This document shows, piece by piece, positions 1 to 8,439 of a stretch of 64,000 nt of DNA (positions are counted from its first letter, which is position 1; each line of letters starts with the position of its first letter). This DNA is from Maribacter algarum (ex Zhang et al. 2020). Lineage in GTDB: Bacteria > Bacteroidota > Bacteroidia > Flavobacteriales > Flavobacteriaceae. The translations under genes and the position numbers were made by a program. Location: contig NZ_VATY01000007.1 of assembly GCF_005885635.1 (NCBI RefSeq), positions 1-64,000 of the forward strand, in the 5' to 3' direction. The notes under the pieces are model-generated. The model made no database searches. It was not told the DNA's origin and was given only the letters and a program-made list of their open reading frames with translations.

Positions 1-1
1 T

Positions 2-205
2 ACCTCTTTAGCTTAAAAGGAAGAGCTGTGGTAAAAGCTATTGATCGTAGCCACGGAGTGATTGGAAGATGTTGTTAGCGGCGTGCCTGCTAATGAATAG
101 AATTTGCAGAAGCACCGAAATGGTCAAAAATCAAAGTAGGGAAGCGCATTTATAGCCAATCTGTTCGTTTCGACGAAAGTGTCAGTTCGAATCTGGCAAG
201 AGGTA
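2..205 (+). ncRNA. tRNA-like RNA with expanded anticodon/variable region
   Basis: ACCTCTT (2-8) pairs over all 7 bases with AAGAGGT (198-204), like an acceptor stem, with A205 in the discriminator place. TA (9-10) is followed by a D-arm (GCTT 11-14 with GAGC 23-26) and by a stem GTGGT (28-32) with GCCAC (50-54) whose loop is 17 bases rather than 7. A T-arm (GTCAG 181-185, TTCGAAT, CTGGC 193-197) closes the 3' side. About 125 bases separate the second hairpin from the T-arm, which is too long for a normal variable arm and short for a group I intron, whose core I cannot find. No anticodon can be read. This looks like a structural tRNA mimic rather than a decoding tRNA. Confidence 0.6.
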
Positions 206-560
206 CAAAGTTCATTGAAATTAGAGGTTCCACAATGGAGCTTCATCGTGTAAATCGTCATTTCTTTTAAATGACGGGGCGGCTTATCGTCCTTAGATAA
301 ACTTGGTAACAAGGATAAATCTGTTAGCTGGCACAGCAAGCGGAGACTGTTTTTTGCAATACAGTACAGGTAAGCAAGCAACCAACATAAGTCATGATTT
401 GCCAGGGGCGACCGCTTAAGCAGATTAGGACTTATAGCTAATACTTTTGGGTAGGCTTGAGATGGAGACATCAATAGGTGAAGTTGTGGTAATGGGTTAC
501 GTATAGGTCATCCAACCTAGCGGAGCTTATTGCAGCATTAAAGGTACCCGGCGGGAAACT
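206..560 (+). ncRNA. Hairpin-rich non-coding stretch, left part
   Basis: This stretch has no supported gene. It begins with the 14-base string AAAGTTCATTGAAA (207-220), which recurs at 1153-1166. A strong hairpin lies at 256-276 (CGTCATTT with AAATGACG, loop CTTTT). The rest has many short self-complementary pieces but I could not derive a confident fold. It is treated as RNA because it sits between tRNA-like modules and has no open frame with family resemblance. Confidence 0.35.
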
Positions 561-697
561 GTTCGGTAGCTTAAAGTGCTGTGTGTCGGGAGACATACAA
601 GAAGAAGGTTGGTATTTTGTAGGCAAAATCTACGGAGCCATTCTCGAAGCCCTTCTTCTAGGCCAAATATGTTTAGGTTCGAATCCTAGAGAAACAC
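557..697 (+). ncRNA. Possible second tRNA-like RNA with long variable arm
   Basis: The 3' end is clear: T-arm TTAGG (673-677), TTCGAAT, CCTAG (685-689), then AGAAACA and ACC-like bases. The 5' end is weaker. TGTT near 560 could pair with AACA (693-696), followed by a D-arm-like TAGCTTAAAGTGCT (567-580) resembling the one at the window start. Between them are an 8-bp hairpin TGTGTGTC/GACATACA (580-587 with 592-599, loop GGGA) and a longer arm GAAGAAGG/CCTTCTTC (601-608 with 651-658) holding GTAG-7 nt-CTAC (619-633). The T-arm is sure; the assignment of the 5' half is a guess. Confidence 0.4.
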
Positions 698-760
698 CTT
701 TTAGTTCTTTTAGCTCAATTGGTGAGCAATACAGCAAAAGACTTCGAGCATTGTAGCAGC
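673..760 (+). ncRNA. T-arm followed directly by a D-arm module
   Basis: The T-arm at 673-689 and its 3' acceptor strand (about 690-696) are followed after six bases by GTTCTTT (704-710), TA and a clean D-arm GCTC/GAGC (713-716 with 724-727, loop AATTGGT). A stem ATACA/TGTAG (729-733 with 752-756, four pairs) with a long loop comes next, much like the hairpin after the D-arm at 11-26. The 3' strand AGAAAC and the 5' strand GTTCT can pair only with a bulged A, so the acceptor pairing is imperfect. It could be a degenerate permuted tRNA, or the 3' end of one tRNA-like RNA next to the 5' end of another. Confidence 0.4.
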
Positions 761-1310
761 TAGTAGTTGCCTAAACCCATTGTGATATATGGGGTGGTAG
801 AGGTGGCAAGCCTATACCATGCGGTGAACATTCTAATAGGTCGCCCTAAAAAGGGACACCTATGAACGGTGGGGGAGCCAACCCCTGTAGTTGCAAAGCG
901 TGACTAAATAGTCACTATGCAAGCCAAGTCTAAGTTGCCGAACAGTTGTAATGATTTATGGCATCGGACAAATACGTGATTTCCAAAGCAACGGAGAAAA
1001 CGTGGAAAAGTAGGGAACGCTTCGGCTATAATCCTACGAAAGTTTGTCCATAAGCGTGGGTATTCCCAGAACGCTTATTAAAATATTTTCAAACCACTTC
1101 GTGGTTTGCTAGAAGTTCCCCGCAACAACGAGGGGTGTTGTGGGGCATATCAAAAGTTCATTGAAAATAAGATTCCTGCCTTCGCGGGAACAAGATATCA
1201 AGCTAGTCTTGTTGGGTGTTTCTGTATAGCACTATTGTGTGAAGTTTTGCTGAGAAGTATTAGGTCTTCATATACAACTTGACTTGAAGGTTTTGGCTGT
1301 TTTCCAAAAA
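761..1310 (+). ncRNA. Large hairpin-rich non-coding stretch
   Basis: There is no supported gene here but there are many strong stems: TTGCA/TGCAA enclosing GTGACTA/TAGTCAC (891-922), TAAGCGT/ACGCTTA (1051-1077), CAAACCAC/GTGGTTTG (1090-1108), a 10-bp stem 1118-1127 with 1136-1145 (one G-T pair), and AACAAGA/TCTTGTT (1189-1213). The 14-base repeat of 207-220 recurs at 1153-1166. At 1291-1309 a 6-bp stem TTTTGG/CCAAAA carries a 7-base loop CTGTTTT with T at the U33 position, so it looks like an anticodon arm. The density of stems supports a structured RNA; its identity is unknown. Confidence 0.45.
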
Positions 1311-1321
1311 ATAGTCACTAC

Positions 1322-1390
1322 TCTGTAGGACATGGGTTCGATTCCCATTCTCGTTTTTGACGAGGTAGTTCAGTGGTAAGAACAACAGAC
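1322..1390 (+). ncRNA. Circularly permuted tRNA-like module (first)
   Basis: The order is 3' half then 5' half. TCTGT (1322-1326), AGGAC as variable loop, a T-arm (ATGGG 1332-1336, TTCGATT, CCCAT 1344-1348) and TCTCGTT (1349-1355) come first. After three T's come GACGAGG (1359-1365), TA, a D-arm (GTTC 1368-1371 with GAAC 1380-1383), A and ACAGA (1385-1389). GACGAGG pairs with TCTCGTT over seven positions (two G-T), and ACAGA pairs with TCTGT over all five. Two independent stems therefore join the halves in permuted order. The anticodon cannot be read because the loop is broken at the module ends. A CCA is not encoded. Confidence 0.65.
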
Positions 1391-1470
1391 GTAGGTGTCG
1401 CGGGTTCGATTCCCGTCAGGTATAAAAACCTGTAGCTCAGTGGGTAGAGCACTACACTTTTAATGTAGGT
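1391..1470 (+). ncRNA. Circularly permuted tRNA-Lys(UUU)-like module
   Basis: The 3' half comes first: GTAGGTGTC, T-arm GCGGG (1400-1404), TTCGATT, CCCGT (1412-1416), then CAGGTAT (1417-1423). Two bases later comes the 5' half: AAACCTG (1426-1432), TA, D-arm GCTC/GAGC (1435-1450), A, and a complete anticodon arm CTACA (1452-1456), CTTTTAA, TGTAG (1464-1468) with anticodon TTT at 1459-1461. GTAGGT stands at both module ends (1391-1396 and 1465-1470). Joining the halves at this repeat gives an almost ideal tRNA-Lys cloverleaf, with one A-A mismatch in the acceptor stem. Permuted tRNA genes are known from some red and green algae and archaea; I know of no such bacterial array. Confidence 0.7.
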
Positions 1471-1560
1471 TATGGACTCAAAATCCATTTTCAACAAGAA
1501 GGTCACTTGTAAAAAGACCACCGGACGGTCACTCCGTATAATTGACAAAAAGCCGTAGTT
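1471..1560 (+). ncRNA. Series of anticodon-arm-like hairpins
   Basis: Directly after the Lys module is ATGGA-CTCAAAA-TCCAT (1472-1488), a 5-bp stem with 7-base loop and T33, reading CAA (Leu). Next is GGTC/GACC (1501-1519) with an 11-base loop containing CTTGTAA, and then CGGA-CGGTCAC-TCCG (1522-1536), whose loop holds GTC as in tRNA-Asp but has G instead of T at position 33. GTATAA/TTATAC (1536-1564) may form a further stem. No D- or T-arms accompany these hairpins. They look like detached anticodon arms. The first is convincing; the others are weaker. Confidence 0.45.
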
Positions 1561-1871
1561 ATACCTCGGTTGGTTTTTCTTCGGATGAGCCAACAGTCTT
1601 GAAACTACTTTGAATTACTGAATTTTTGATGTGAAAGGCAATTTCTTTTTTGAATATCCTTCCCTCGGAAAAACCAATAAATAGTATTGGAAACACCGAC
1701 CGAAGCATACCAAAAAACAAGTCGTAACGAGCTTCGAAAACCAATATTTCCGTATCGAATAGATGAGTTATTGTTGCGGTTTTTTAAAAGAGAATTAAAC
1801 CAATTAATAATAAATGAAAATAGTTTAACCCGTTCGTCCGTCAATCGACTGGCGGACACAAATTTTAAGTA
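1561..1871 (+). other. Leader region before slipin gene
   Basis: About 300 bases without a supported gene. GGTTTTTC-type sequence at 1570-1579 is complementary to GAAAAACCAA at about 1677-1686, so a long-range stem is possible. CGAAGC (about 1702) can pair with GCTTCG (about 1734). Just before the slipin start, GTCCGTCA and TGGCGGAC form an 8-bp hairpin (about 1839-1860). Short open frames on both strands here lack family features and a ribosome-binding site and are not annotated. The hairpin may affect slipin translation or end the upstream RNA, but it has no T-tract. Confidence 0.3.
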
Positions 1872-2972
1872 ATGAAAAGAGTAAGAATCAATGCAGGAAA
1901 AGTAGGTTTGGTCTTCAAAAGAGGCGATTACCAAAAAGTTATTACCCAAGGTACACACTGGGTAGGCTTTCAAAATATGGTTAAGGTCTATGACCTTACC
2001 AAAGCCTTTGTTGCTCCTATAGCATTAGAAATCTTGCTAAAGGACCAAGGATTGGAAGCTATGTTGCATATCATCGAAGTTAAGGATGCCGAATTGGCCT
2101 TGGTTTCTGAAAACGGAAACTTGAAACAAGTCCTAACTGCTGGTAAGTACGCTTTCTGGAAAGGTCTGATAAACTTCGAGTTCGTTATGGCGGACCTGAG
2201 TAAGATCTACATCACAGAAGCTATCAGTAAAGCGATGCTAAGCCATCCTCAGTTGCGAGCGTATGTTCGTACTTTGGAAGTTGCGGCTTACGAGAAAGCC
2301 GTCCTTTTGGTCGATGATGTTTATGTCAAAACGCTGGAAAGTGGTACCTACCATTTCTGGAAGAACGACATTTCCATCAAAATCGCCAGAGCGGATATGC
2401 GTCAATTGCAATTGGAAATTTCTGGTCAAGAGTTGTTGACTAAAGACAAGGCCGCTATTCGTATCAACTTCTATACACAGTATAAAGTTGTTGATATTGA
2501 AAAGGCTTTGCTAGGTAGCAAGGACTATGAAAAGCAATTGTACATTGCGATGCAGTTGGTATTGCGTGCCTACATTGGCACCTATACCTTGGATGAGCTT
2601 TTAGAGCGAAAAGAAAGTATCGCTGAAGCCGTATTTGCAGATATCAAAACAGCAGCTACCCAGTTGGGTGTTGAAGTTTTGAGCTGCGGTATCCGTGATG
2701 TAATCTTAACTGGTGAAATGAAAGACATCATGAACCAGGTTTTGGTTGCTCAAAAGAGAGCTCAGGCGAATATCATTACCCGACGTGAAGAGACTGCGTC
2801 TACCAGAAGTTTGTTGAACACCGCAAAGTTGATGGAAGACAACGAAATGCTCTTCAAGTTGAAGGAAATGGAATACGTTGAAAAGATCGCCGAAAAAATC
2901 GGCAAGATTACCGTCTCTGGAAACGGAGGTATGGTAAAGCAATTGAAGGAGATTTTCTCCGTCAATAAGTAG
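1872..2972 (+). CDS. Slipin-type SPFH/Band-7 protein with three N-terminal repeats
   Basis: A 366-residue SPFH protein. The N-terminal half holds three similar beta-rich units (about residues 10-40, 74-110 and 141-175), each with a hydrophobic strand, a charged turn and a G-x-Y/H plus aromatic-W element (GTHWVGF, GKYAFWKG, GTYHFWKN). The third leads into the SPFH core (about 178-290), followed by a charged helical tail. No signal peptide or membrane helix is visible, so it is probably a soluble scaffold, unlike stomatins. SPFH proteins oligomerise into rings. Known: slipins of this kind occur in predicted RNA-repair loci with RtcB ligases and a tRNA-like RNA. Here the RNA array is directly upstream on the same strand; no ligase is in the window. 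Its exact task is inferred. Confidence 0.85.
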   Translation: MKRVRINAGKVGLVFKRGDYQKVITQGTHWVGFQNMVKVYDLTKAFVAPIALEILLKDQGLEAMLHIIEVKDAELALVSENGNLKQVLTAGKYAFWKGLINFEFVMADLSKIYITEAISKAMLSHPQLRAYVRTLEVAAYEKAVLLVDDVYVKTLESGTYHFWKNDISIKIARADMRQLQLEISGQELLTKDKAAIRINFYTQYKVVDIEKALLGSKDYEKQLYIAMQLVLRAYIGTYTLDELLERKESIAEAVFADIKTAATQLGVEVLSCGIRDVILTGEMKDIMNQVLVAQKRAQANIITRREETASTRSLLNTAKLMEDNEMLFKLKEMEYVEKIAEKIGKITVSGNGGMVKQLKEIFSVNK

Positions 2973-2981
2973 GTTGGTTAG

Positions 2982-3011
2982 AATGCGTCAATGTGAGTTG
3001 GCGCATTTTTT
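2982..3011 (+). terminator. Terminator after slipin
   Basis: A 10-bp stem (2982-2991 with 2998-3007, one T-G pair), loop TGTGAG, runs into a T-tract on the plus strand. It lies between two convergent genes and ends the slipin transcript. Confidence 0.8.
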
Positions 3012-3963
3012 ATTTCCATTTTTCTTCAAGTCGATTAGCCAGTTCTTCTATTTGTTTTGTCATTACTAAACCATCAAGCCAATTTTCGGGAAACGATTCA
3101 TAACCATAATAAATACCAGCCAATCCACCTGTAATTGCAGCTGTAGTATCAGTATCTTCTCCTAGATTCACAGCTTTTAAAATACAGTCTTTATAGCTTT
3201 CACTCTTCAAAAAACACCATAAAGAAGCCTCCAAGCTATCAACTACATAACCACTTGATTTAATTTCATTCCTATCTAAATCTTGAATATTGTTTGTAAT
3301 AATCCTATCAAATTGTTGTGTTTCACTTGTAACGATTTCACGTTCTTGAAAGAATTTATTAATTCGTGTTCTTGTATTAAAATAGGCTGTCGCTTTTTCT
3401 CTTTCTTCCATTAACTCATCTACCAAAACTAAATATATTAAACAGGAAATCGCTGCCCTTATATGACCATGGGTCAATGCAGAAACTTCCCATATAATTT
3501 CAAATCCTTTTTCAACACCTTCGCCCTTTAAAACATGATAAAGCGGAAGTATTCGCATAAGCGAACCATTTCCATTTGTGAATTCGTCTACTTCATACCT
3601 TAAGTATTTCAGGCTTTCCCAATCCTTATCTTGATTGATTTGAATTAATTGATTTATGGCTTTCATTGTTTGAATACCTATATCAAAAACTTCATCATGC
3701 GCTGTCCATTTAGCATTGAGTTTCCAGGCTATAAACTGCTTCGCAATATCAGCTAAATCAAAACCGTCACATAAGCTATCGGCTAAACAAAAAGTAAGTG
3801 AGCTATCATCGGACCAAGTTCCTGGAGGTTGATGATGAGTGCCGAATCCTTGCATGTCAGTAACTGGGCTTTTATCCAGCATAACTCGAGATTGAAATTC
3901 AACAGGCACGCCAATGGCGTCCCCAATGGCTAAACCTAAAATTCCATCCTTAATAGTTTTCAT
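3010..3963 (-). CDS. ADP-ribosylglycohydrolase (DraG/ARH family)
   Basis: A 317-residue protein with the family hallmarks: GLAIGDAIGVPVEF near the N-terminus, WSDDS at about 50-54 (the metal-binding T/S-D-D site) and GEDTDT at about 268-273 near the C-terminus, the second di-metal site. These enzymes hydrolyse ADP-ribose from proteins or nucleic acids using magnesium or manganese. Length is normal for the family. It is the last gene of the minus-strand operon that starts with an SPFH gene at 7543, 18 bases after the DUF4291 gene. With NADAR in the same operon, its likely role is removing or recycling ADP-ribose marks. The substrate is not deducible. Confidence 0.9.
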   Translation of the reverse strand: MKTIKDGILGLAIGDAIGVPVEFQSRVMLDKSPVTDMQGFGTHHQPPGTWSDDSSLTFCLADSLCDGFDLADIAKQFIAWKLNAKWTAHDEVFDIGIQTMKAINQLIQINQDKDWESLKYLRYEVDEFTNGNGSLMRILPLYHVLKGEGVEKGFEIIWEVSALTHGHIRAAISCLIYLVLVDELMEEREKATAYFNTRTRINKFFQEREIVTSETQQFDRIITNNIQDLDRNEIKSSGYVVDSLEASLWCFLKSESYKDCILKAVNLGEDTDTTAAITGGLAGIYYGYESFPENWLDGLVMTKQIEELANRLEEKWK

Positions 3964-3981
3964 AAAATATCCTATTTAGGC

Positions 3982-4617
3982 TTATTTTAGTTTTAATCGT
4001 TTACAAACCTCCCGTTCCTTTGGCATATATGCGGTTTCCTCTGGAATCAACAGCTTGTCTAAAGTGTTTTGAACTACCCATTTTCGTTGTTCCTTAACAT
4101 AATTCGAAATATCTTCGATTTTCAGAATATCTTCTTTTGCGAATTTTTCTATTTCCTCATTACGAATCCCTATTTGAATCGCTCTTCTTTCAAGTTTTGC
4201 CCCATACGGGTCATGATCAGGATCCCATTGCAATCGTATATTTGAGTTCTTTACCGCTTCAGACCAAACATTTCGATCTCCGTAAATATCTTGTTGGTAG
4301 CTTGAATAAACGGCAAGACTTAAGTAGCGTTCAAAAGCTTCGCGTTTTAAGTGAAGCGCTAAAACAACTTCTTGACCTTCTTTTGTTCCCCATCCATTTC
4401 GATACATCATCCAGAGAAAATTGGGTTTAATCCAGGTCATTCTGGCTAGACTGAAATCACCTCCAAAATATTGGTTTTTAATTGCAAAATCACCTATGCT
4501 TGGTCTATATGATTGGTATACAATGACTTTATCATCATCATACTGGGCCATTATATGATATCCGTTATCTGGCCACAATTCGTTTTGTTCTATATATAAT
4601 TTCGTTTTTAAGTTCAT
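3982..4617 (-). CDS. DUF4291 family protein
   Basis: A 211-residue protein matching DUF4291 in its conserved blocks: IMAQYDDDKVIVYQSYRP, FGGDFSLARMTWIKPNFLWMM, RNGWGTKEGQE, and LQWDPDHDPYGAKLERRAIQ. I know no firm biochemical function for the family. It is highly conserved in sequence, which suggests an enzyme with nucleotide or RNA-related substrates. The start overlaps the stop of the preceding gene by four bases (ATGA), so translation is coupled. Its place between a crystallin-J1-like gene and ADP-ribosylglycohydrolase, in an operon with NADAR, ties it to ADP-ribose or NAD chemistry by context only. Confidence 0.85.
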   Translation of the reverse strand: MNLKTKLYIEQNELWPDNGYHIMAQYDDDKVIVYQSYRPSIGDFAIKNQYFGGDFSLARMTWIKPNFLWMMYRNGWGTKEGQEVVLALHLKREAFERYLSLAVYSSYQQDIYGDRNVWSEAVKNSNIRLQWDPDHDPYGAKLERRAIQIGIRNEEIEKFAKEDILKIEDISNYVKEQRKWVVQNTLDKLLIPEETAYMPKEREVCKRLKLK

Positions 4618-5030
4618 TTTATTTCTGTTCTTTTGATTATCCCATCAACGACGCTAGTCACCTTGGGAACGAACTGTTTTCCTAAAAAGGTTTTAGTTAC
4701 ATAGATTTTATCTTGAATGTTTTTGTTAAACTCCTCAAGTTCTTTAGACGGAACCCACAGCTCATTATGAATCTTATTCCCCACATTTTGAACTTCGTAT
4801 TTTTCAATAAAATCCGAACTCATAACAAAGGCAGTAACAAATCCACAATAGCCTGAAAATTCATCAATAGTATTCCATTTAAGAGCTATTTCAATAGCGT
4901 AATCTTCATTCATCACTGGATAGAAGATTGGTTGCCAATCTAACCTGGGTGGAAAAGCTTTAAAATCATTTTCTATAATTAGCTCCAATTCTTTTAAACC
5001 TACAGGACGATATAAGGTTATATTCTTCAT
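4614..5030 (-). CDS. Small 'ADP-ribosylation/crystallin J1'-like protein
   Basis: A 138-residue protein beginning MKNITLYRPVGLKELELI, with FPPRLDWQPIFYPVMNEDYA and ELWVPSKELEEFN. I recognise the family that databases commonly label ADP-ribosylation/crystallin J1; the label is inherited and the activity is unknown to me. It has no membrane segment or signal. It lies nine bases after NADAR and overlaps DUF4291 by four bases. The operon context suggests a part in ADP-ribose or NAD handling. Confidence 0.7.
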   Translation of the reverse strand: MKNITLYRPVGLKELELIIENDFKAFPPRLDWQPIFYPVMNEDYAIEIALKWNTIDEFSGYCGFVTAFVMSSDFIEKYEVQNVGNKIHNELWVPSKELEEFNKNIQDKIYVTKTFLGKQFVPKVTSVVDGIIKRTEIK

Positions 5031-5039
5031 TTTGTATAG

Positions 5040-5585
5040 TTAAATAAGTTCATCCCTCACCTCCATTAAAGCAAAACCCAACAAGTTTTCACCTCTCCAA
5101 AATTCTGGGTTCTGAGCTTTTTCGTTCGATTGCGCCATACCGATTCCCCAAATTCTATCTCTTGGACTTGCTTCTACTAAAACACGGTTTTTTGTATTTA
5201 ACAAATACTCCTTTAAATCCTGATGCTGTGAGAATTTGTACATATTTCCTTGTTTTACGATTTGATATTTTTGTTTATCCCATTCTTCCGGTATAAACCC
5301 AACTACTTTCCTTCCCCATTTTTTGGCTTCGGCAGGAGACTCACAATTAATAATCTCTCCTAAACTATTTCCGTCATTAAACAGTCTTGCCTTTTCTGCC
5401 ATCATCCAATGTTCTGTACTTTTATAAGTAATTCCATCTACAATAAAAGGAGCAATCCACCATTGACTAAAGCAGCTTTTACCAATACTCCCGTCTTTGT
5501 TAGCTGCATGGCCCCAAAAGAATAAAAACTTGATTTTACTTTCGTTATGAAAATCATTAACAAGCTGTTGTCTATTATATTTCAT
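5040..5585 (-). CDS. NADAR (YbiA-like) family protein
   Basis: A 181-residue NADAR domain protein. Features are FLFFWGH near the N-terminus, FSQWW, the STEHWMMAEKARLF motif at about 55-70, and the C-terminal LVEASPRDRIWGIGM and WRGENLLGFALMEVRD blocks. Known: NADAR proteins are glycosidases able to remove ADP-ribose from guanine bases in nucleic acids, and YbiA relatives act on riboflavin intermediates. In this operon, the de-ADP-ribosylation role fits better than riboflavin metabolism. It is the third operon gene, 16 bases after the NAD-kinase-like gene. Confidence 0.9.
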   Translation of the reverse strand: MKYNRQQLVNDFHNESKIKFLFFWGHAANKDGSIGKSCFSQWWIAPFIVDGITYKSTEHWMMAEKARLFNDGNSLGEIINCESPAEAKKWGRKVVGFIPEEWDKQKYQIVKQGNMYKFSQHQDLKEYLLNTKNRVLVEASPRDRIWGIGMAQSNEKAQNPEFWRGENLLGFALMEVRDELI

Positions 5586-5601
5586 TTTCTATTTAATAAA
5601 C

Positions 5602-6525
5602 TTATACTATCAAATTTGCTTTTTCTTTAGCTATACTAATCTCAGCAATACTTCCTGAATTAAAATTCAAAAAATCAGATTCAATTCCATCACTAAAAAT
5701 TACTCCTTTGGTGGGCATTTTGGACTCGATTTTCAAAGTCTTACCTCTTGTAATGGTTCCATAACCTAAGCCTATCTGCGACATTTTACTGAGAAACGGC
5801 TCACGAACCACAAATAATAACTTATCATCTTCCCAATCCACTCCAGAATCAAATTCTCTCTTCTGATTATAAAAATAGCTGTTAATATTATTGGTCATGT
5901 TAAAAACAGAACTGATCCATCCGGTGGAGCCAGCGCCTGTTGACACTAAAACACCACTGGAAGATTGGCTTTCTCTTTTTCCTCCAAATTCAAGACTATA
6001 TCGTGAAGATACATGTGAAGCAGCCCCAATATAAAAATCGTTAAATGCTAAAAGAGATTGTCCGTCATTCATTGTTGCCTTTGCCATGGTTACCATTTTC
6101 GATGTATGATTTCCATGAACAAAATTCTTTATTGCTGTTAGAAAAGTCTCTGGGTTATGAGGTAATAAAACCCCATCATAACGTTCTGCATCTGGGTTAA
6201 CGGCCACCATTGGTAAGCCATTTATATACTTGGCTGTATTGGCAACCAATCCGTCTTGTCCTATAACCACAATCAAATCTCCTTCGGCAAACATATAGGT
6301 GGGTAAAAAAGAACGAAACAATACTTTATGCTTAAATGATGTAGAAATTGCTTTTTCAACTTCACTCAGCGAGTTATAAAAAGTATCATGTTCCTTTTCG
6401 TAGAACCCAAAGTCTTCCCCTGAACGTTCTAAATAAAACTTGGCTTGAGCTTTTGAGTTGAAACGCTCGATGAGCTGCTCAAGCCTTGTTTTATCTCTGA
6501 TGACTATTACCTTATCTAGTTCCAT
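5602..6525 (-). CDS. NAD-kinase-like protein
   Basis: A 307-residue protein of the NAD kinase/diacylglycerol kinase-like fold. Evidence is the VNPDAERYDGVLLPHN block (NPD at about 110-112), and GVLVSTGAGSTGW at about 191-203, equivalent to the STPTGSTAY loop of NAD kinases. The glycine-rich GGDGT motif is altered to GQDGL (about 89-93), so ATP binding may differ or be lost. The first 80 residues have no clear match. It starts one base after the SPFH gene stop, indicating translational coupling. It could be an NADP-making enzyme, a relative acting on another nucleotide or a sensor; the family is fairly sure and the activity is not. Confidence 0.75.
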   Translation of the reverse strand: MELDKVIVIRDKTRLEQLIERFNSKAQAKFYLERSGEDFGFYEKEHDTFYNSLSEVEKAISTSFKHKVLFRSFLPTYMFAEGDLIVVIGQDGLVANTAKYINGLPMVAVNPDAERYDGVLLPHNPETFLTAIKNFVHGNHTSKMVTMAKATMNDGQSLLAFNDFYIGAASHVSSRYSLEFGGKRESQSSSGVLVSTGAGSTGWISSVFNMTNNINSYFYNQKREFDSGVDWEDDKLLFVVREPFLSKMSQIGLGYGTITRGKTLKIESKMPTKGVIFSDGIESDFLNFNSGSIAEISIAKEKANLIV

Positions 6526-6526
6526 C

Positions 6527-7543
6527 TTACTTATTCTTGGTGCTCATTATTGATTCCAACAACTCTGGCGAAATATTGAGGTTGCCAATTTTATCAGCAT
6601 TCTCAGCCAATTCTCTAAAGGCAAGTGCAATATGGTTTCTCGGGTCAACACCTTTTGAATTGATAGCCATGAGTGTTTTCCAATCCAATTCTTTATACGG
6701 ACGAAGATTGGCATGTAAAACATATTCTTTAACATCAGCTTCTTTCTTCTCGTTTTCCACCTTTATTTCGATTAACTTCTGTTTGCTATCTTCAAGTGAA
6801 ATGTTGGAAGCCATATCCATTTCTTTAAGCTTCTGCTCATTTTCTTGTTTCACCACTTCCGTTTCCATTTGCTTTTCAGCAATCTGTTTTTGTTTCTCCT
6901 CAATAGCAATTTCAGTATTCAATTCGGTTTCCTTAATAATACGCTCTTGTTCAACTGCGAAATTTCTTCGTTCATAGATGGCTTGATCAGCTTCTTTTTG
7001 AAGAGACTCACGCATTTGAGCTTCTAAAGCCCGAGCCATTTCAGGGTTAGGTGTTACTCCTAAAACATTCACACTCAATATTTCAAGTCCTAGCATATTC
7101 ACAGTTTTAGAATTTTGAACACTATCCAAAATCTGTGTTTCTATTTGCTGCAGTTGACGCAGTGCCTCTTTCAAGCTCAATTTTTGTATAACTCCAGCAC
7201 TAGCAGTTTGGGCTTCATTAATGATACGCTGTTGAATTTTTTCGTTATCATCTTTTACATAGTAACCTTTACTATCTACTGTGAAATCAAGAACTTCAGC
7301 CAGTTGCTTTGGGTCTTTTACCTTATAGGTTATTTGCCCTTGAATAGAAACTTCTTGGTAGTCTTTCGTTGTTTCGTTAAAAATGAACTGAAAATCTTTA
7401 CTCTCCATAGGAATGGAAACTATGGAAGAATTCGGAGCAAAGTAGAAAAAAGACAATCCCCTACCTTCATTCCTGATATTTCCATTTTTGAAATAGATAA
7501 CGTAATTCATTGAATCGAATTTGATATAGTTTATTCCGAACAT
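6527..7543 (-). CDS. SPFH domain protein with long coiled coil
   Basis: A 338-residue SPFH/Band-7 protein. The SPFH core covers about residues 1-165 with no N-terminal membrane helix. A highly charged region rich in E, K and Q (about 180-275) predicts a long coiled coil, as in flotillin-like proteins. The C-terminus (about 276-338) is mixed. It differs from the slipin at 1872, which lacks such a coiled coil and has three N-terminal repeats. It is the first gene of the operon, downstream of three NrtR-like operator sites. The likely role is an oligomeric scaffold for the NADAR/ARH enzymes; this is inferred. Confidence 0.8.
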   Translation of the reverse strand: MFGINYIKFDSMNYVIYFKNGNIRNEGRGLSFFYFAPNSSIVSIPMESKDFQFIFNETTKDYQEVSIQGQITYKVKDPKQLAEVLDFTVDSKGYYVKDDNEKIQQRIINEAQTASAGVIQKLSLKEALRQLQQIETQILDSVQNSKTVNMLGLEILSVNVLGVTPNPEMARALEAQMRESLQKEADQAIYERRNFAVEQERIIKETELNTEIAIEEKQKQIAEKQMETEVVKQENEQKLKEMDMASNISLEDSKQKLIEIKVENEKKEADVKEYVLHANLRPYKELDWKTLMAINSKGVDPRNHIALAFRELAENADKIGNLNISPELLESIMSTKNK

Positions 7544-7566
7544 AATATATAGTTTTAAAAAATTAA

Positions 7567-7587
7567 TTTGTGTATTTATTACGCAAA
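7567..7587. promoter_or_regulatory. NrtR-like operator 1 before SPFH operon
   Basis: An inverted repeat of TTTGTGTA, five bases and TACGCAAA, with one mismatched pair. It resembles the perfect GTGTATA-type palindrome upstream of the nrtR-like gene and lies 24 bases from the SPFH start, where it could block transcription. Confidence 0.6.
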
Positions 7588-7593
7588 TATAAA

Positions 7594-7614
7594 ATGTGTT
7601 TTTGAATCACGCAA
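7594..7614. promoter_or_regulatory. NrtR-like operator 2 (weak)
   Basis: ATGTGT at 7594-7599 and ACGCAA at 7609-7614 repeat the half-sites of the neighbouring operators at a spacing of about 26-28 bases. The symmetry is poorer than in the other two. Confidence 0.35.
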
Positions 7615-7619
7615 GATAT

Positions 7620-7640
7620 TTTGTGTTTTTTTTACGCAAA
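7620..7640. promoter_or_regulatory. NrtR-like operator 3 before SPFH operon
   Basis: TTTGTGTT, five T's and TACGCAAA form the third copy of the same inverted repeat, 53 bases from the first. It sits just after the regulator's own stop codon. Confidence 0.5.
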
Positions 7641-7666
7641 TTAAAATTCAAAGCTTGTAGATAAGG

Positions 7667-8341
7667 CTATATTTCGAAGATGATACCTTCCATTTTTAGT
7701 TGGAAATAGCGTTTCTTATTAAAGCTAAAAAGGCTGGCAGGCCTACCTCTGCCTATAGAAACCTTCTCGTCTAATTCATCTAAAACTTTCAGGCTAGTAA
7801 TTTTCTTTTTGAAATTTCTTCTATCAATTTCACGATCCAGCAGGGTGGTGTAAAGCTTTTCTAAATCGGAAAAAGGGAACTTTTTATCGAGTAACTCAAA
7901 TCCGATAGGCTCATATGTAATCTTTCCTTGTAGTCTTTCAATGGCAATTTTTAAGATTTTTTTGTGGTCAAATGCTAACTTAGGCAACCGTTTAATATCG
8001 AACCATTCTGCTTTCTTTGCATCAGTAGACGCGGTCAACTTGAAGGCATTTGGTTTGACCAATCCGAAGTAGGCCACTGAGACCACCCTACCCCTCGGGT
8101 CTCGTCCTAAATCTCCAAAGGTGTACAATTGTTCCAAGTAGTTAATTTTAGCTCCCGTCTCTTCGGACAATTCTCTTTGAACCGCTTGTTCCAAATTTTC
8201 ATTTTCCAATACAAAGCCTCCTGGCAGTGCCCAACCATCTTTAAAGGGTTCGTATTTACGTTTGACCAGAAGTACAGATATATTCCCAGAATCATAACCA
8301 AATACTACTGCGTCGACGGTAAGTTGAATTTTGTTTTTCAT
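7667..8341 (-). CDS. nrtR: NrtR-type Nudix-domain transcriptional regulator
   Basis: I use the ATG at 8341 (protein starts MKNKIQLTV, 224 residues); the open frame runs 27 codons further but through the operator. The N-terminal Nudix domain has a complete box, G-x5-E-x7-RELSEETGA, so hydrolase activity is possible. The C-terminal half (PIGFELLDKKFPFSDLEKLY through GRGRPASLFSF) matches the winged-helix region of NrtR regulators, which repress NAD-related genes and respond to ADP-ribose or related nucleotides. It is followed by the SPFH/NADAR operon on the same strand with operator-like palindromes between. A near-perfect palindrome overlaps its own promoter, suggesting autoregulation. Confidence 0.85.
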   Translation of the reverse strand: MKNKIQLTVDAVVFGYDSGNISVLLVKRKYEPFKDGWALPGGFVLENENLEQAVQRELSEETGAKINYLEQLYTFGDLGRDPRGRVVSVAYFGLVKPNAFKLTASTDAKKAEWFDIKRLPKLAFDHKKILKIAIERLQGKITYEPIGFELLDKKFPFSDLEKLYTTLLDREIDRRNFKKKITSLKVLDELDEKVSIGRGRPASLFSFNKKRYFQLKMEGIIFEI

Positions 8342-8345
8342 TATA

Positions 8346-8362
8346 TGTGTATAATATACACA
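8346..8362. promoter_or_regulatory. Palindromic NrtR-like operator of the regulator gene
   Basis: TGTGTATA-A-TATACACA is a 17-base palindrome, perfect apart from its central base, ending five bases from the ATG of the Nudix regulator. The same half-site GTGTA recurs before the SPFH operon. NrtR operators are known to be A/T-rich palindromes of this kind. Confidence 0.75.
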
Positions 8363-8408
8363 AATATAGCTAAGATTGTATTTAATTCTGCTAGATACTT
8401 TAAAACAA

Positions 8409-8439
8409 AAAAGCCAGTTCAAAAAATGAACTGGCTTTT
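8409..8439. terminator. Bidirectional terminator
   Basis: A 13-bp perfect stem (8409-8421 with 8427-8439), AAAAGCCAGTTCA and its complement around five A's, with T's on both outer arms. It separates the NAD/ADP-ribose region from the island and directly abuts the 13-bp direct repeat at 8440. Confidence 0.8.

What the first reader, a model, noticed from the sequence alone, without database searches (positions are those of the whole stretch)
1..2972. tRNA-like RNA array in front of a soluble slipin: a candidate RNA-sensing or RNA-repair system
About 1.5 kb without a protein gene holds at least four T-arms, four D-arms, several anticodon-like hairpins and many other strong stems, directly upstream of a slipin without membrane helices. 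Burroughs and Aravind (2016) proposed SPFH/Band-7 proteins paired with a tRNA-like RNA as scaffolds in RNA repair. Here the RNA seems much more elaborate, with permuted tRNAs and multiple anticodon arms. A possible role, which is inference, is to act as bait or sensor for anticodon nucleases.
Basis: partly seen in the sequence, partly recalled or inferred. Interest (0 to 1): 0.9.

Follow-up and report, generated by a model that had tools for sequence, protein, structure and literature searches.

The report
tRNA-mimic RNA in repair island
Next to a gene for a soluble scaffold protein lies a large structured RNA built from rearranged copies of tRNA, and in many related bacteria the same pair sits beside banks of spare tRNA genes and RNA-repair enzymes, which suggests a system that protects or replaces damaged tRNA.

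Summary
Window 1-1870 has no evident protein gene and holds three structured RNAs: (1) 1-206, tRNA-like with a ~125-nt insert; (2) 221-1152, GOLLD-type (Rfam hit 600-1074, E 6e-33, 122 bits, below the 150-bit cut-off); (3) ~1230-1800, not in Rfam as a whole, with two circularly permuted tRNAs, an anticodon arm and a third T-arm. RNA 3 lies upstream of the slipin in 117 of 120 homologous loci. Covariation is strong: 54 of 123 predicted pairs exceed the 99.9th percentile of background, against 0-5 for slid controls. It includes a tRNA-type 15-48 pair in permuted order. In relatives, true tRNA genes precede this RNA (89 of 120 loci; 10 or more in 35), and RtcB, PrfH or a TPR protein lies nearby in 74 of 101 loci with long flanks. 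In the window's own genome the array is missing: contigs break there at a two-copy repeat, and the facing end of the same contig carries two rlaP genes and rtcB. I read it as an RNA-repair and tRNA-replacement island whose slipin scaffolds tRNA mimics. Scaffold, bait and sensor roles are inferred. The slipin/tRNA-like pair was proposed in 2016 (recalled). The array, GOLLD link, multi-elbow RNA and variable anticodon appear new.

The parts
1..206 (+). RNA 1: tRNA-like RNA; acceptor stem 2-7/199-204 (can extend by one pair each side), D-arm 10-27, anticodon-position hairpin 28-54, ~125-nt structured insert, T-arm 180-198
   Evidence: Homologs in 27 of 119 other loci. On 28 sequences 14 of 55 pairs exceed the 99.9th percentile against 0-1 when slid.
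207..220 (.). 14-bp direct repeat AAAGTTCATTGAAA, left copy
   Evidence: Identical to 1153-1166. The C14 copy of the locus has a single copy and no GOLLD block.
221..1152 (+). RNA 2: GOLLD-type RNA with a conserved 5' domain; Rfam GOLLD match at 600-1074
   Evidence: RF02032 122.2 bits, E 6e-33, model 1-416 of 416; 12 near full-length homologs among 119 loci, 73-93% identical to the window; 4 of 4 relatives scanned match GOLLD at 119-136 bits; covariation, 26 of 261 pairs above the 99.9th percentile against 0-2 slid.
668..733 (+). Permuted tRNA unit in the linker of the GOLLD-type RNA
   Evidence: Model R1, 24.9 bits, E 1.5e-4; one pair of T-arm 673-689 is above the 99.9th percentile.
1153..1166 (.). 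14-bp direct repeat, right copy
1226..1801 (+). RNA 3: slipin-associated RNA; only local Rfam matches (tRNA, YrlA, tmRNA), none over its length
   Evidence: Found upstream of the slipin in 117 of 120 loci, 77 of them complete; 123 predicted pairs, 78 above the 99th and 54 above the 99.9th percentile.
1322..1389 (+). Permuted tRNA 1: anticodon stem 1322-1326/1385-1389, T-arm 1332-1348, closed acceptor stem 1349-1365, D-arm 1368-1383
   Evidence: 93.3% of cells paired and 16 of 21 pairs change on both sides, covariation score 0.561 against 0.210 shuffled; 80 bits (one of the 29 sequences the model was built from).
1390..1456 (+). Permuted tRNA 2: T-arm 1400-1416, closed acceptor stem 1417-1432, D-arm 1435-1450
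   Evidence: 61 bits with model R1. Acceptor stem: 7 of 7 pairs above the 99.9th percentile. Levitt-type pair 1399-1440 is C-G in 36 and U-A in 35 of 74.
1452..1468 (+). Anticodon arm, loop CUUUUAA (triplet UUU, lysine type)
   Evidence: 4 of 5 pairs above the 99.9th percentile; triplet UUU in 29, CAU in 12, UAG in 8, GUU in 5, UCG in 5 of 77.
1472..1488 (+). Third T-arm-like hairpin (loop CUCAAAA)
   Evidence: 94% paired, 1 of 5 pairs above the 99.9th percentile.
1548..1784 (+). 3' domain closed by the long-range helix 1548-1567/1765-1784, which ends in a U-run
   Evidence: 18 pairs, 9 above the 99.9th percentile.
1872..2972 (+). Soluble slipin: tandem beta-repeats, SPFH domain and long helices
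   Evidence: Band_7 E 1.3e-27; highest 19-residue hydropathy 1.2; adjacent repeats 93 and 96% by hhalign, first against third 27%; AlphaFold2 pLDDT 80, pTM 0.59.
3010..3963 (-). ADP-ribosylglycohydrolase (possible accessory)
   Evidence: PF03747 E 2.7e-70; same order in L088.
3982..4617 (-). DUF4291 protein (possible accessory)
   Evidence: PF14124 E 9.3e-67; in L088 and three Aquimarina loci, L103, L106, L148.
5040..5585 (-). NADAR protein (possible accessory)
   Evidence: PF08719 E 2.3e-54; a homolog, 62% identical, lies beside the C14 copy.
5602..6525 (-). NAD kinase-like protein (possible accessory; below the curated cut-off)
   Evidence: NCBIfam NAD kinase E 2e-4.
6527..7543 (-). Second SPFH/Band_7 protein (possible accessory)
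   Evidence: PF01145 E 2.5e-20.
7667..8422 (-). NrtR-type Nudix regulator of NAD metabolism (possible accessory)
   Evidence: NrtR_WHD and NUDIX; also beside the C14 copy, 96% identical.

Best explanation
The region is the RNA half of an RNA-repair and tRNA-replacement island. Shown by sequence: three covarying RNAs, of which RNA 3 is an almost constant partner of a soluble slipin; true tRNA genes in front of it in most relatives; RtcB, PrfH or TPR genes nearby in most relatives with long flanks; RNA 3 carries tRNA elbows in permuted order, so the acceptor stem is a closed hairpin with no free 3' end. Inferred: when tRNAs or ribosomes are damaged (anticodon nucleases, colicin-like RNases, other translational stress), the spare tRNAs refill the pool, RtcB and PrfH repair and rescue, and the slipin forms a ring or cage that holds RNA 3. 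The tRNA elbows of RNA 3 then either recruit tRNA-processing and tRNA-cleaving enzymes to the scaffold or compete for them. The anticodon triplet changes between species while its stem stays much the same in its commonest forms, as expected if it faces a changing enemy or partner. Where present, GOLLD adds a second RNA scaffold.
For: RNA 3 in 117 of 120 loci with strong covariation. Levitt-type pair in permuted order. tRNA genes, outside RNAs 1-3, in 89 of 120 loci. RtcB in 53, PrfH in 27 and TPR in 63 of 101 loci with at least 4.8 kb on both sides. Own genome: two RlaP genes and rtcB at the facing end of the same contig, a second rtcB on C12; KptA/Tpt1 and NADAR beside the C14 copy. The permuted unit also lies just upstream of the distant slipin of a Bacillota plasmid record (34.5 bits, E 2.5e-7), and its T-arm plus closed stem upstream of two enterobacterial slipins, weakly (E 0.0026 and 0.026); one of these (L170) has rtcR next to the slipin. 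Array tRNAs are biased: Ala, Gly, Thr, Val, Met and Ile make 35 of 626, against 12 of 36 in the own genome, Fisher p 1.4e-6, set chosen after seeing the data. Parallel: in Anabaena a silent 26-tRNA operon, rtcB and a slipin are repressed by TrcR and rise in translational stress (PMC10272220, passages).
Against: No expression, binding or phenotype data. 31 of 120 loci have no tRNA gene outside RNAs 1-3 in the 4.5 kb or less examined; only 5 of these have under 2 kb upstream, so the array is not obligatory. 27 of 101 loci had no RtcB, PrfH or TPR hit in the stretch held. The window's own copy has no tRNA gene in the assembly, and its array is inferred from relatives. Loci were gathered from the slipin side only: how often such arrays occur without slipin was not tested. 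Mimic anticodon and array content show no simple relation. In Anabaena, deleting the trn operon or rtcB from the trcR mutant did not change its kasugamycin or BMAA resistance. YrlA, a related mimic, was not cleaved by the Salmonella nuclease (PMC7790460, passages), which argues against cleavable bait but not against a competitor.
Confidence: 0.55

Rival explanations
1. RNA 3 is the long regulatory leader of the slipin mRNA: its tRNA-like elbows sense tRNA level or damage and control read-through into the slipin gene.
For: In the 117 loci found (only this strand was kept) it lies upstream on the slipin strand; the 77 complete matches end 25-385 nt before the start codon; the last helix ends in a U-run.
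Against: 570 nt with permuted tRNA folds is unlike known leaders (recalled). No terminator/antiterminator pair was looked for systematically; the one rival pairing tested, of the anticodon stem, is possible in only 20 of 74 sequences. tRNA-like units also occur in GOLLD and RNA 1, away from the slipin.
Confidence: 0.2
2. The array and its RNAs are a cargo of selfish or phage origin that supplies codons, and the slipin merely marks an insertion site.
For: tRNA islands and GOLLD are typical of phages (PMC12286853, passages); slipin fragments without T-loop motifs upstream lie in three genomes (L067-L069) and near rtcB in the own genome; the GOLLD block lies between direct repeats.
Against: Slipin relatives: none confirmed in the viral-contig scan, one weak partial hit in phage records. 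RNA 3 scores above 100 bits with slipins down to 52% identity. RtcB, RlaP and PrfH are not codon-supply genes.
Confidence: 0.12
3. The tRNA-like pieces are decaying tRNA genes without function.
For: ARAGORN finds no tRNA gene in the window.
Against: Compensatory changes at 16 of 21 pairs, all 7 pairs of the second acceptor stem, and the Levitt-type pair.
Confidence: 0.02
4. The GOLLD-type RNA is an independent passenger of tRNA arrays and has no part in the slipin system.
For: Only 12 of 119 other loci have it near full length; the sister copy on C14 lacks it; GOLLD is known beside tRNA islands (PMC12286853, passages).
Against: It lies upstream of RNA 3 on the same strand in 12 other loci, 69-93% identical among themselves, and in the window carries a permuted tRNA like RNA 3.
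Confidence: 0.4

Closest known systems
SPFH/Band-7 scaffold with a novel tRNA-like RNA in RNA repair (Burroughs and Aravind 2016; recalled, paper not held)
   Same: SPFH protein with an adjacent tRNA-like RNA in an RNA-repair neighbourhood; a distant relative beside rtcR (L170) and RlaP genes in the own genome fit this class.
   Different: Here the RNA is ~570 nt with two permuted tRNAs, an anticodon arm and a large 3' domain, and is joined by tRNA arrays, RNA 1 and GOLLD. Whether the 2016 paper shows any of this could not be checked.
Y RNA YrlA (RF02553)
   Same: tRNA-like domain (PMC7790460, passages; permuted order recalled); rtc operon context in Salmonella. Weak match at 1366-1482, 44 bits.
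   Different: Below the 69-bit cut-off; several elbows in a chain; an SPFH protein, and no TROVE gene among the eight window genes scanned.
GOLLD RNA (RF02032)
   Same: Full-length model match, E 6e-33; tRNA piece in the linker; tRNA arrays beside it in relatives.
   Different: 122 bits against a 150 cut-off; slipin locus of Bacteroidota, whereas the published ones are described from phages and prophages.
RtcB2-PrfH(-TPR) operon
   Same: Genes left of the array in a part of the relatives; the TPR accretion is described in PMC6514570 (passages); protection from colicin E3 is stated in the title of PMC9223846.
   Different: Term searches inside both papers gave no SPFH or tRNA genes, and in PMC9223846 no slipin or tRNA array.
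Anabaena trn operon and TrcR regulon
   Same: Silent 26-tRNA array, rtcB and a slipin under one repressor, rising in translational stress (PMC10272220, passages).
   Different: Array on a plasmid, the other genes on the chromosome; the paper holds no 'tRNA-like'.
Major vault protein and vault RNA
   Same: SPFH fold; MVP is among the structural matches of the whole slipin (E 1.6e-10); small RNA partner (recalled).
   Different: The N-terminal repeats alone do not find MVP in the listed 50 matches; stomatin-type proteins match better. Analogy only.

Membership tests
SPFH/tRNA-like RNA repair class | SPFH/Band-7 protein | tested here: met
   PF01145 E 1.3e-27.
SPFH/tRNA-like RNA repair class | Adjacent tRNA-like RNA | tested here: met
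SPFH/tRNA-like RNA repair class | RNA ligase in the neighbourhood | tested here: inconclusive
   Relatives: RtcB in 53 of 101. Own locus ends at a contig edge; rtcB lies on facing contig ends, on C18 behind two RlaP genes.
SPFH/tRNA-like RNA repair class | Same RNA as in the 2016 paper | not testable with these tools
   Paper not held.
GOLLD RF02032 | Rfam gathering score of 150 bits | tested here: not met
   122.2 bits; four relatives 119-136. I therefore write GOLLD-type, although the E-value is 6e-33.
GOLLD RF02032 | Match to the complete model | tested here: met
   Positions 1-416 of 416.
GOLLD RF02032 | Cage of 14 copies | not testable with these tools
   Needs cryo-EM.
YrlA Y RNA RF02553 | Gathering score of 69 bits | tested here: not met
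   44.1 bits.
YrlA Y RNA RF02553 | TROVE/Rsr partner gene | not tested
   None among the eight genes scanned at 1872-8422; relatives not scanned for it.
tRNA gene | Complete cloverleaf with free acceptor end | tested here: not met
   ARAGORN 0 genes in 64 kb; the acceptor stems of RNA 3 are closed hairpins.
RtcB2-PrfH system | prfH next to rtcB | tested here: inconclusive
   PrfH in 27 of 101 relatives; the own rtcB is of the other kind and what follows it is cut by the contig end.
Major vault protein | MVP-type repeats | tested here: not met
   Repeat region alone: no match below E 0.001, MVP not among the 50 listed.

The most novel reading that the evidence does not exclude
A bacterial tRNA vault: a soluble SPFH protein forms a cage or ring around chains of permuted tRNA elbows, with GOLLD as an RNA cage in some species. 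Together they store, shield or sort tRNAs during nuclease attack while spare tRNAs and RtcB/PrfH restore translation. The changeable anticodon arm is a decoy or sensor tuned to the attacker. This would give GOLLD its first cellular role.
Probability: 0.2. Interest if true: 0.95.

Novelty: new variant of a known kind. Interest (0 to 1): 0.82.

Why it matters
It joins four loose ends: the SPFH/tRNA-like pair, bacterial tRNA arrays, the RtcB/PrfH repair genes and the giant RNA GOLLD, whose function is unknown. It gives a genetic locus in named strains of marine bacteria (for example Zobellia uliginosa C3R17, L092: array and RNA 3, no GOLLD match) where array, mimic RNA, repair genes and slipin can be tested together. 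RNA 3 shows natural selection for a tRNA tertiary contact in permuted order, a clean case of tRNA mimicry.

Tried and rejected
Rejected: decaying tRNAs (covariation); plain tRNA genes; a simple rule between mimic anticodon and array content; vault membership (repeats alone). ROOL: no match in nine loci at the gathering score or in four at E 0.01. Thought unlikely but not excluded: contig C18 as a plasmid (of ten window proteins scanned nine had ordinary chromosomal-type domains; the missing repeat could also close C18 into a circle). The TPR query gave nothing in the own genome, which fits the missing repeat but proves nothing.

Dropped before counts: three loci with only slipin fragments (L067-L069); seven duplicate loci (127 to 120); 11 ARAGORN calls that lie inside RNA 1 or RNA 3 matches, which lowers the loci with tRNA from 93 to 89 and the tRNAs from 637 to 626; 40 of the 117 RNA 3 matches, incomplete or weak, left out of the covariation test. 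The anticodon/array comparison was made before those 11 calls were removed. An earlier count said 26 RNA 1 homologs; the list gives 27.


Full report
Setting. The window is the first 64 kb of contig C18 of a 5.1-Mb, 20-contig genome. The closest slipins in named records are from Flavobacteriaceae, among them Croceitalea, Maribacter and Zobellia. No protein gene is evident in 1-1870; then follow a soluble slipin (1872-2972) and, on the other strand, genes of NAD and ADP-ribose metabolism.

The observation. Rfam, searched with a permissive threshold, finds GOLLD at 600-1074 (122.2 bits, E 6e-33, whole model; cut-off 150), YrlA at 1366-1482 (44 bits, cut-off 69), two tRNA matches and a tmRNA fragment. 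ARAGORN finds no tRNA gene. The same genome has a second copy of the locus at the left end of contig C14: window 1-220 matches at 99% and 1153-3014 at 95%, but the 933 bp between, which hold GOLLD, are absent there; a 14-bp direct repeat marks both edges in the window. Between the two copies the acceptor-like stems differ in sequence yet still pair.

What lies left of base 1. Both C18 and C14 start at the same base. The right end of C18 and the left end of C12 (reversed) both carry rtcB and stop at the same base. So a nearly identical two-copy stretch is probably missing from the assembly. On C18 two RlaP genes (RNA-repair nucleotidyltransferase family, E 3e-71 and 3e-29) precede rtcB. In the relatives L090 and L088 both ends find matches about 1.55 kb apart, and this interval holds 15 and 16 tRNA genes. 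That the window's strain has this array too is an inference.

Relatives. Slipin matches were found in 31 of 299 genomes of the family, three of them fragments only, and in 20 of 395 of the phylum, both counts with the own genome; 80 loci were kept from the genome collection. After removing the fragments and seven duplicates, 120 loci remain. Outside RNAs 1-3, 89 of the 120 have at least one tRNA gene in the 4.5 kb (or less, where held) before the slipin: 35 have ten or more, 16 have five to nine, 38 have one to four; 31 have none, 5 of these with under 2 kb held. The arrays lack alanine tRNA (0 of 626) and are poor in Gly, Thr, Val, Met and Ile (35 of 626 with Ala, against 12 of 36 in the own genome; Fisher p 1.4e-6, set chosen after seeing the data). 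CCA is encoded in 30 of 637. Among 101 loci with at least 4.8 kb on both sides, TPR is found in 63, RtcB in 53, PrfH in 27, at least one of the three in 74. The NAD, ADP-ribose and RNA-phosphate genes counted there are accessory (each in 2 to 6 of 101). The viral-contig scan confirmed no slipin relative, and phage records gave one weak partial match. How often such arrays occur without a slipin was not tested.

RNA 3, the slipin RNA. A 563-position profile finds it before the slipin in 117 of 120 loci, in 77 complete; one of the three misses has only 226 bp of upstream sequence. Among the 77 complete copies, 54 of 123 predicted pairs exceed the 99.9th percentile of all column pairs, against 0 to 5 when partners are slid by 1-3 columns. 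Its parts, in window coordinates, are given in the parts list. The central part reads anticodon stem, T-arm, acceptor stem closed by a short loop, D-arm, anticodon stem: a tRNA opened at the anticodon and sealed at the acceptor end. On a separate 29-sequence alignment this unit is 93.3% paired and 16 of 21 pairs show two-sided change; the number of pair types alone is not exceptional (35 of 500 shuffles reach it). A model of it scores 80 bits on unit 1 (one of its own training sequences), 61 bits on unit 2, and 24.9 bits on a unit inside the GOLLD linker. In unit 2 the position before the T-stem (1399) and the second base of the D-loop (1440) are C-G in 36 and U-A in 35 of 74 sequences. These are the two usual forms of the tRNA 15-48 tertiary pair (recalled), so the T- and D-arms probably dock as in tRNA although their order is reversed. 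In unit 1 the same pair is nearly constant (C-G 69 of 77, C-A 4, U-A 4) and says little.

The anticodon arm. 1452-1468 has the loop CUUUUAA, as in lysine tRNA (array lysine tRNAs have it too). Among 77 sequences the triplet is UUU in 29, CAU 12, UAG 8, GUU 5, UCG 5, missing in 4, others 14; the stem CUACA/UGUAG is found in about half of the UUU and CAU forms (15 of 29 UUU and 7 of 12 CAU have it with the commonest loop) and in some GUU forms. Whether the array holds the same isoacceptor shows no clear relation (UUU: 12 of 19 against 15 of 20).

RNA 1 and RNA 2. RNA 1 (1-206) has 27 homologs among 119 loci; GOLLD has 12 near full-length ones and one cut by a contig end. Both covary. Four of four relatives scanned match Rfam GOLLD at 119-136 bits, each below the cut-off, so this is probably a divergent branch.

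The slipin. It has no strongly hydrophobic segment (19-residue maximum 1.2), and its N-terminus holds tandem beta-repeats (adjacent pairs 93 and 96% by hhalign; first against third only 27%). The model (pLDDT 80, pTM 0.59) matches stomatin best (1e-14), then HflK/C, prohibitin and, at 1.6e-10, major vault protein. The N-terminal 128 residues alone give no match below E 0.001; most of their best-ranked matches are SPFH proteins, and MVP is not in the 50 shown. The vault likeness is thus an analogy.

Beyond Bacteroidota. The permuted unit scores 34.5 bits (E 2.5e-7, rough) 243-328 nt upstream of a slipin match on a Bacillota plasmid record. Its T-arm and closed stem score weakly (E 0.0026 and 0.026) about 155-190 nt upstream of two enterobacterial slipins. 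Both of these slipins are followed by a nucleotidyltransferase gene, and in one (L170) rtcR is the next gene upstream. In P. aeruginosa an SPFH gene is embedded in the rtc locus (PMC13086221, passage). This agrees with the class proposed by Burroughs and Aravind in 2016, which I know by recall only.

Mechanism. Shown: conservation, structure, neighbours. Inferred: joint expression under RNA damage, slipin-RNA binding, scaffold and decoy roles. [quoted passage not shown] In Anabaena a tRNA array, rtcB and a slipin share the repressor TrcR, although deleting the array or rtcB did not change the kasugamycin and BMAA resistance of the trcR mutant (PMC10272220, passages). Together they make repair with tRNA replacement the best reading.

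Novelty. Searches of the held library (listings seen): GOLLD with slipin, 0 papers; three of Band-7/tRNA-like/RtcB/slipin, 0; PrfH/RtcB/tRNA genes, 2, on other subjects by title and abstract start; two of GOLLD/tRNA array/RtcB/PrfH/slipin, 13, of which none holds GOLLD with RtcB, PrfH or slipin and only the Anabaena paper holds tRNA array with RtcB and slipin; three of SPFH/tRNA-like/RtcB/RNA repair, 10, of which only the P. aeruginosa paper holds SPFH. Most subscription papers are not held, so this is weak evidence of novelty. I file it as a new variant of a known kind: the pair is known, the assembly appears not to be.

Noticed in passing
G000:C12:1-3700 (L193): The rtcB on C12 has a different N-terminus from the C18 copy, as if joined to another gene, and a slipin C-terminal relic (112 bp, 81%) lies nearby.
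   Followed up: partly
L067, L068, L069: Three genomes carry only slipin fragments (residues 176-363, 296-363, 311-366) and no T-loop motif in the 3.5 kb upstream: decay, or a site where the island was lost or inserts.
   Followed up: no
L110, L112, L115, L122, L145 (about 2.8 to 1.8 kb before the slipin): A conserved block of about 980 nt inside Aquimarina tRNA arrays; L110 searched permissively, no Rfam match beyond tRNA-type. Possibly another large RNA.
   Followed up: partly
window:1459-1463 and homologs: The anticodon-like loops fall mainly into two classes, U36-A37-A38 and G36-G37-U38, as real tRNA loops do (tRNA rule recalled).
   Followed up: partly
window:1390-1394 against 1452-1456: The 5' strand of the anticodon stem could pair instead with the linker before T-arm 2, a possible switch; possible in only 20 of 74 sequences.
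   Followed up: yes
L006:2099-7196: Beside the C14 copy: metallophosphatase, KptA/Tpt1 RNA 2'-phosphotransferase (E 4e-52), SLOG-family protein, NADAR, deoxyribosyltransferase-like, phosphoribosyltransferase and NAPRTase/NAMPT families.
   Followed up: partly
L046:4811-4886, L103:6780-6882, L045:6136-6208: Flavo-1 RNA (RF01705) near slipin loci, above the Rfam cut-off.
   Followed up: no
L103, L110, L115, L158, L101: Some array tRNAs match the tRNA-Sec model best, at 46-52 bits around its 47-bit cut-off; probably serine tRNAs.
   Followed up: no
window:10987-60356: Of ten proteins scanned nine have ordinary domains: SusC/SusD-type, sulfatase, beta-lactamase-family and others; no sign of a plasmid in these ten.
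   Followed up: partly
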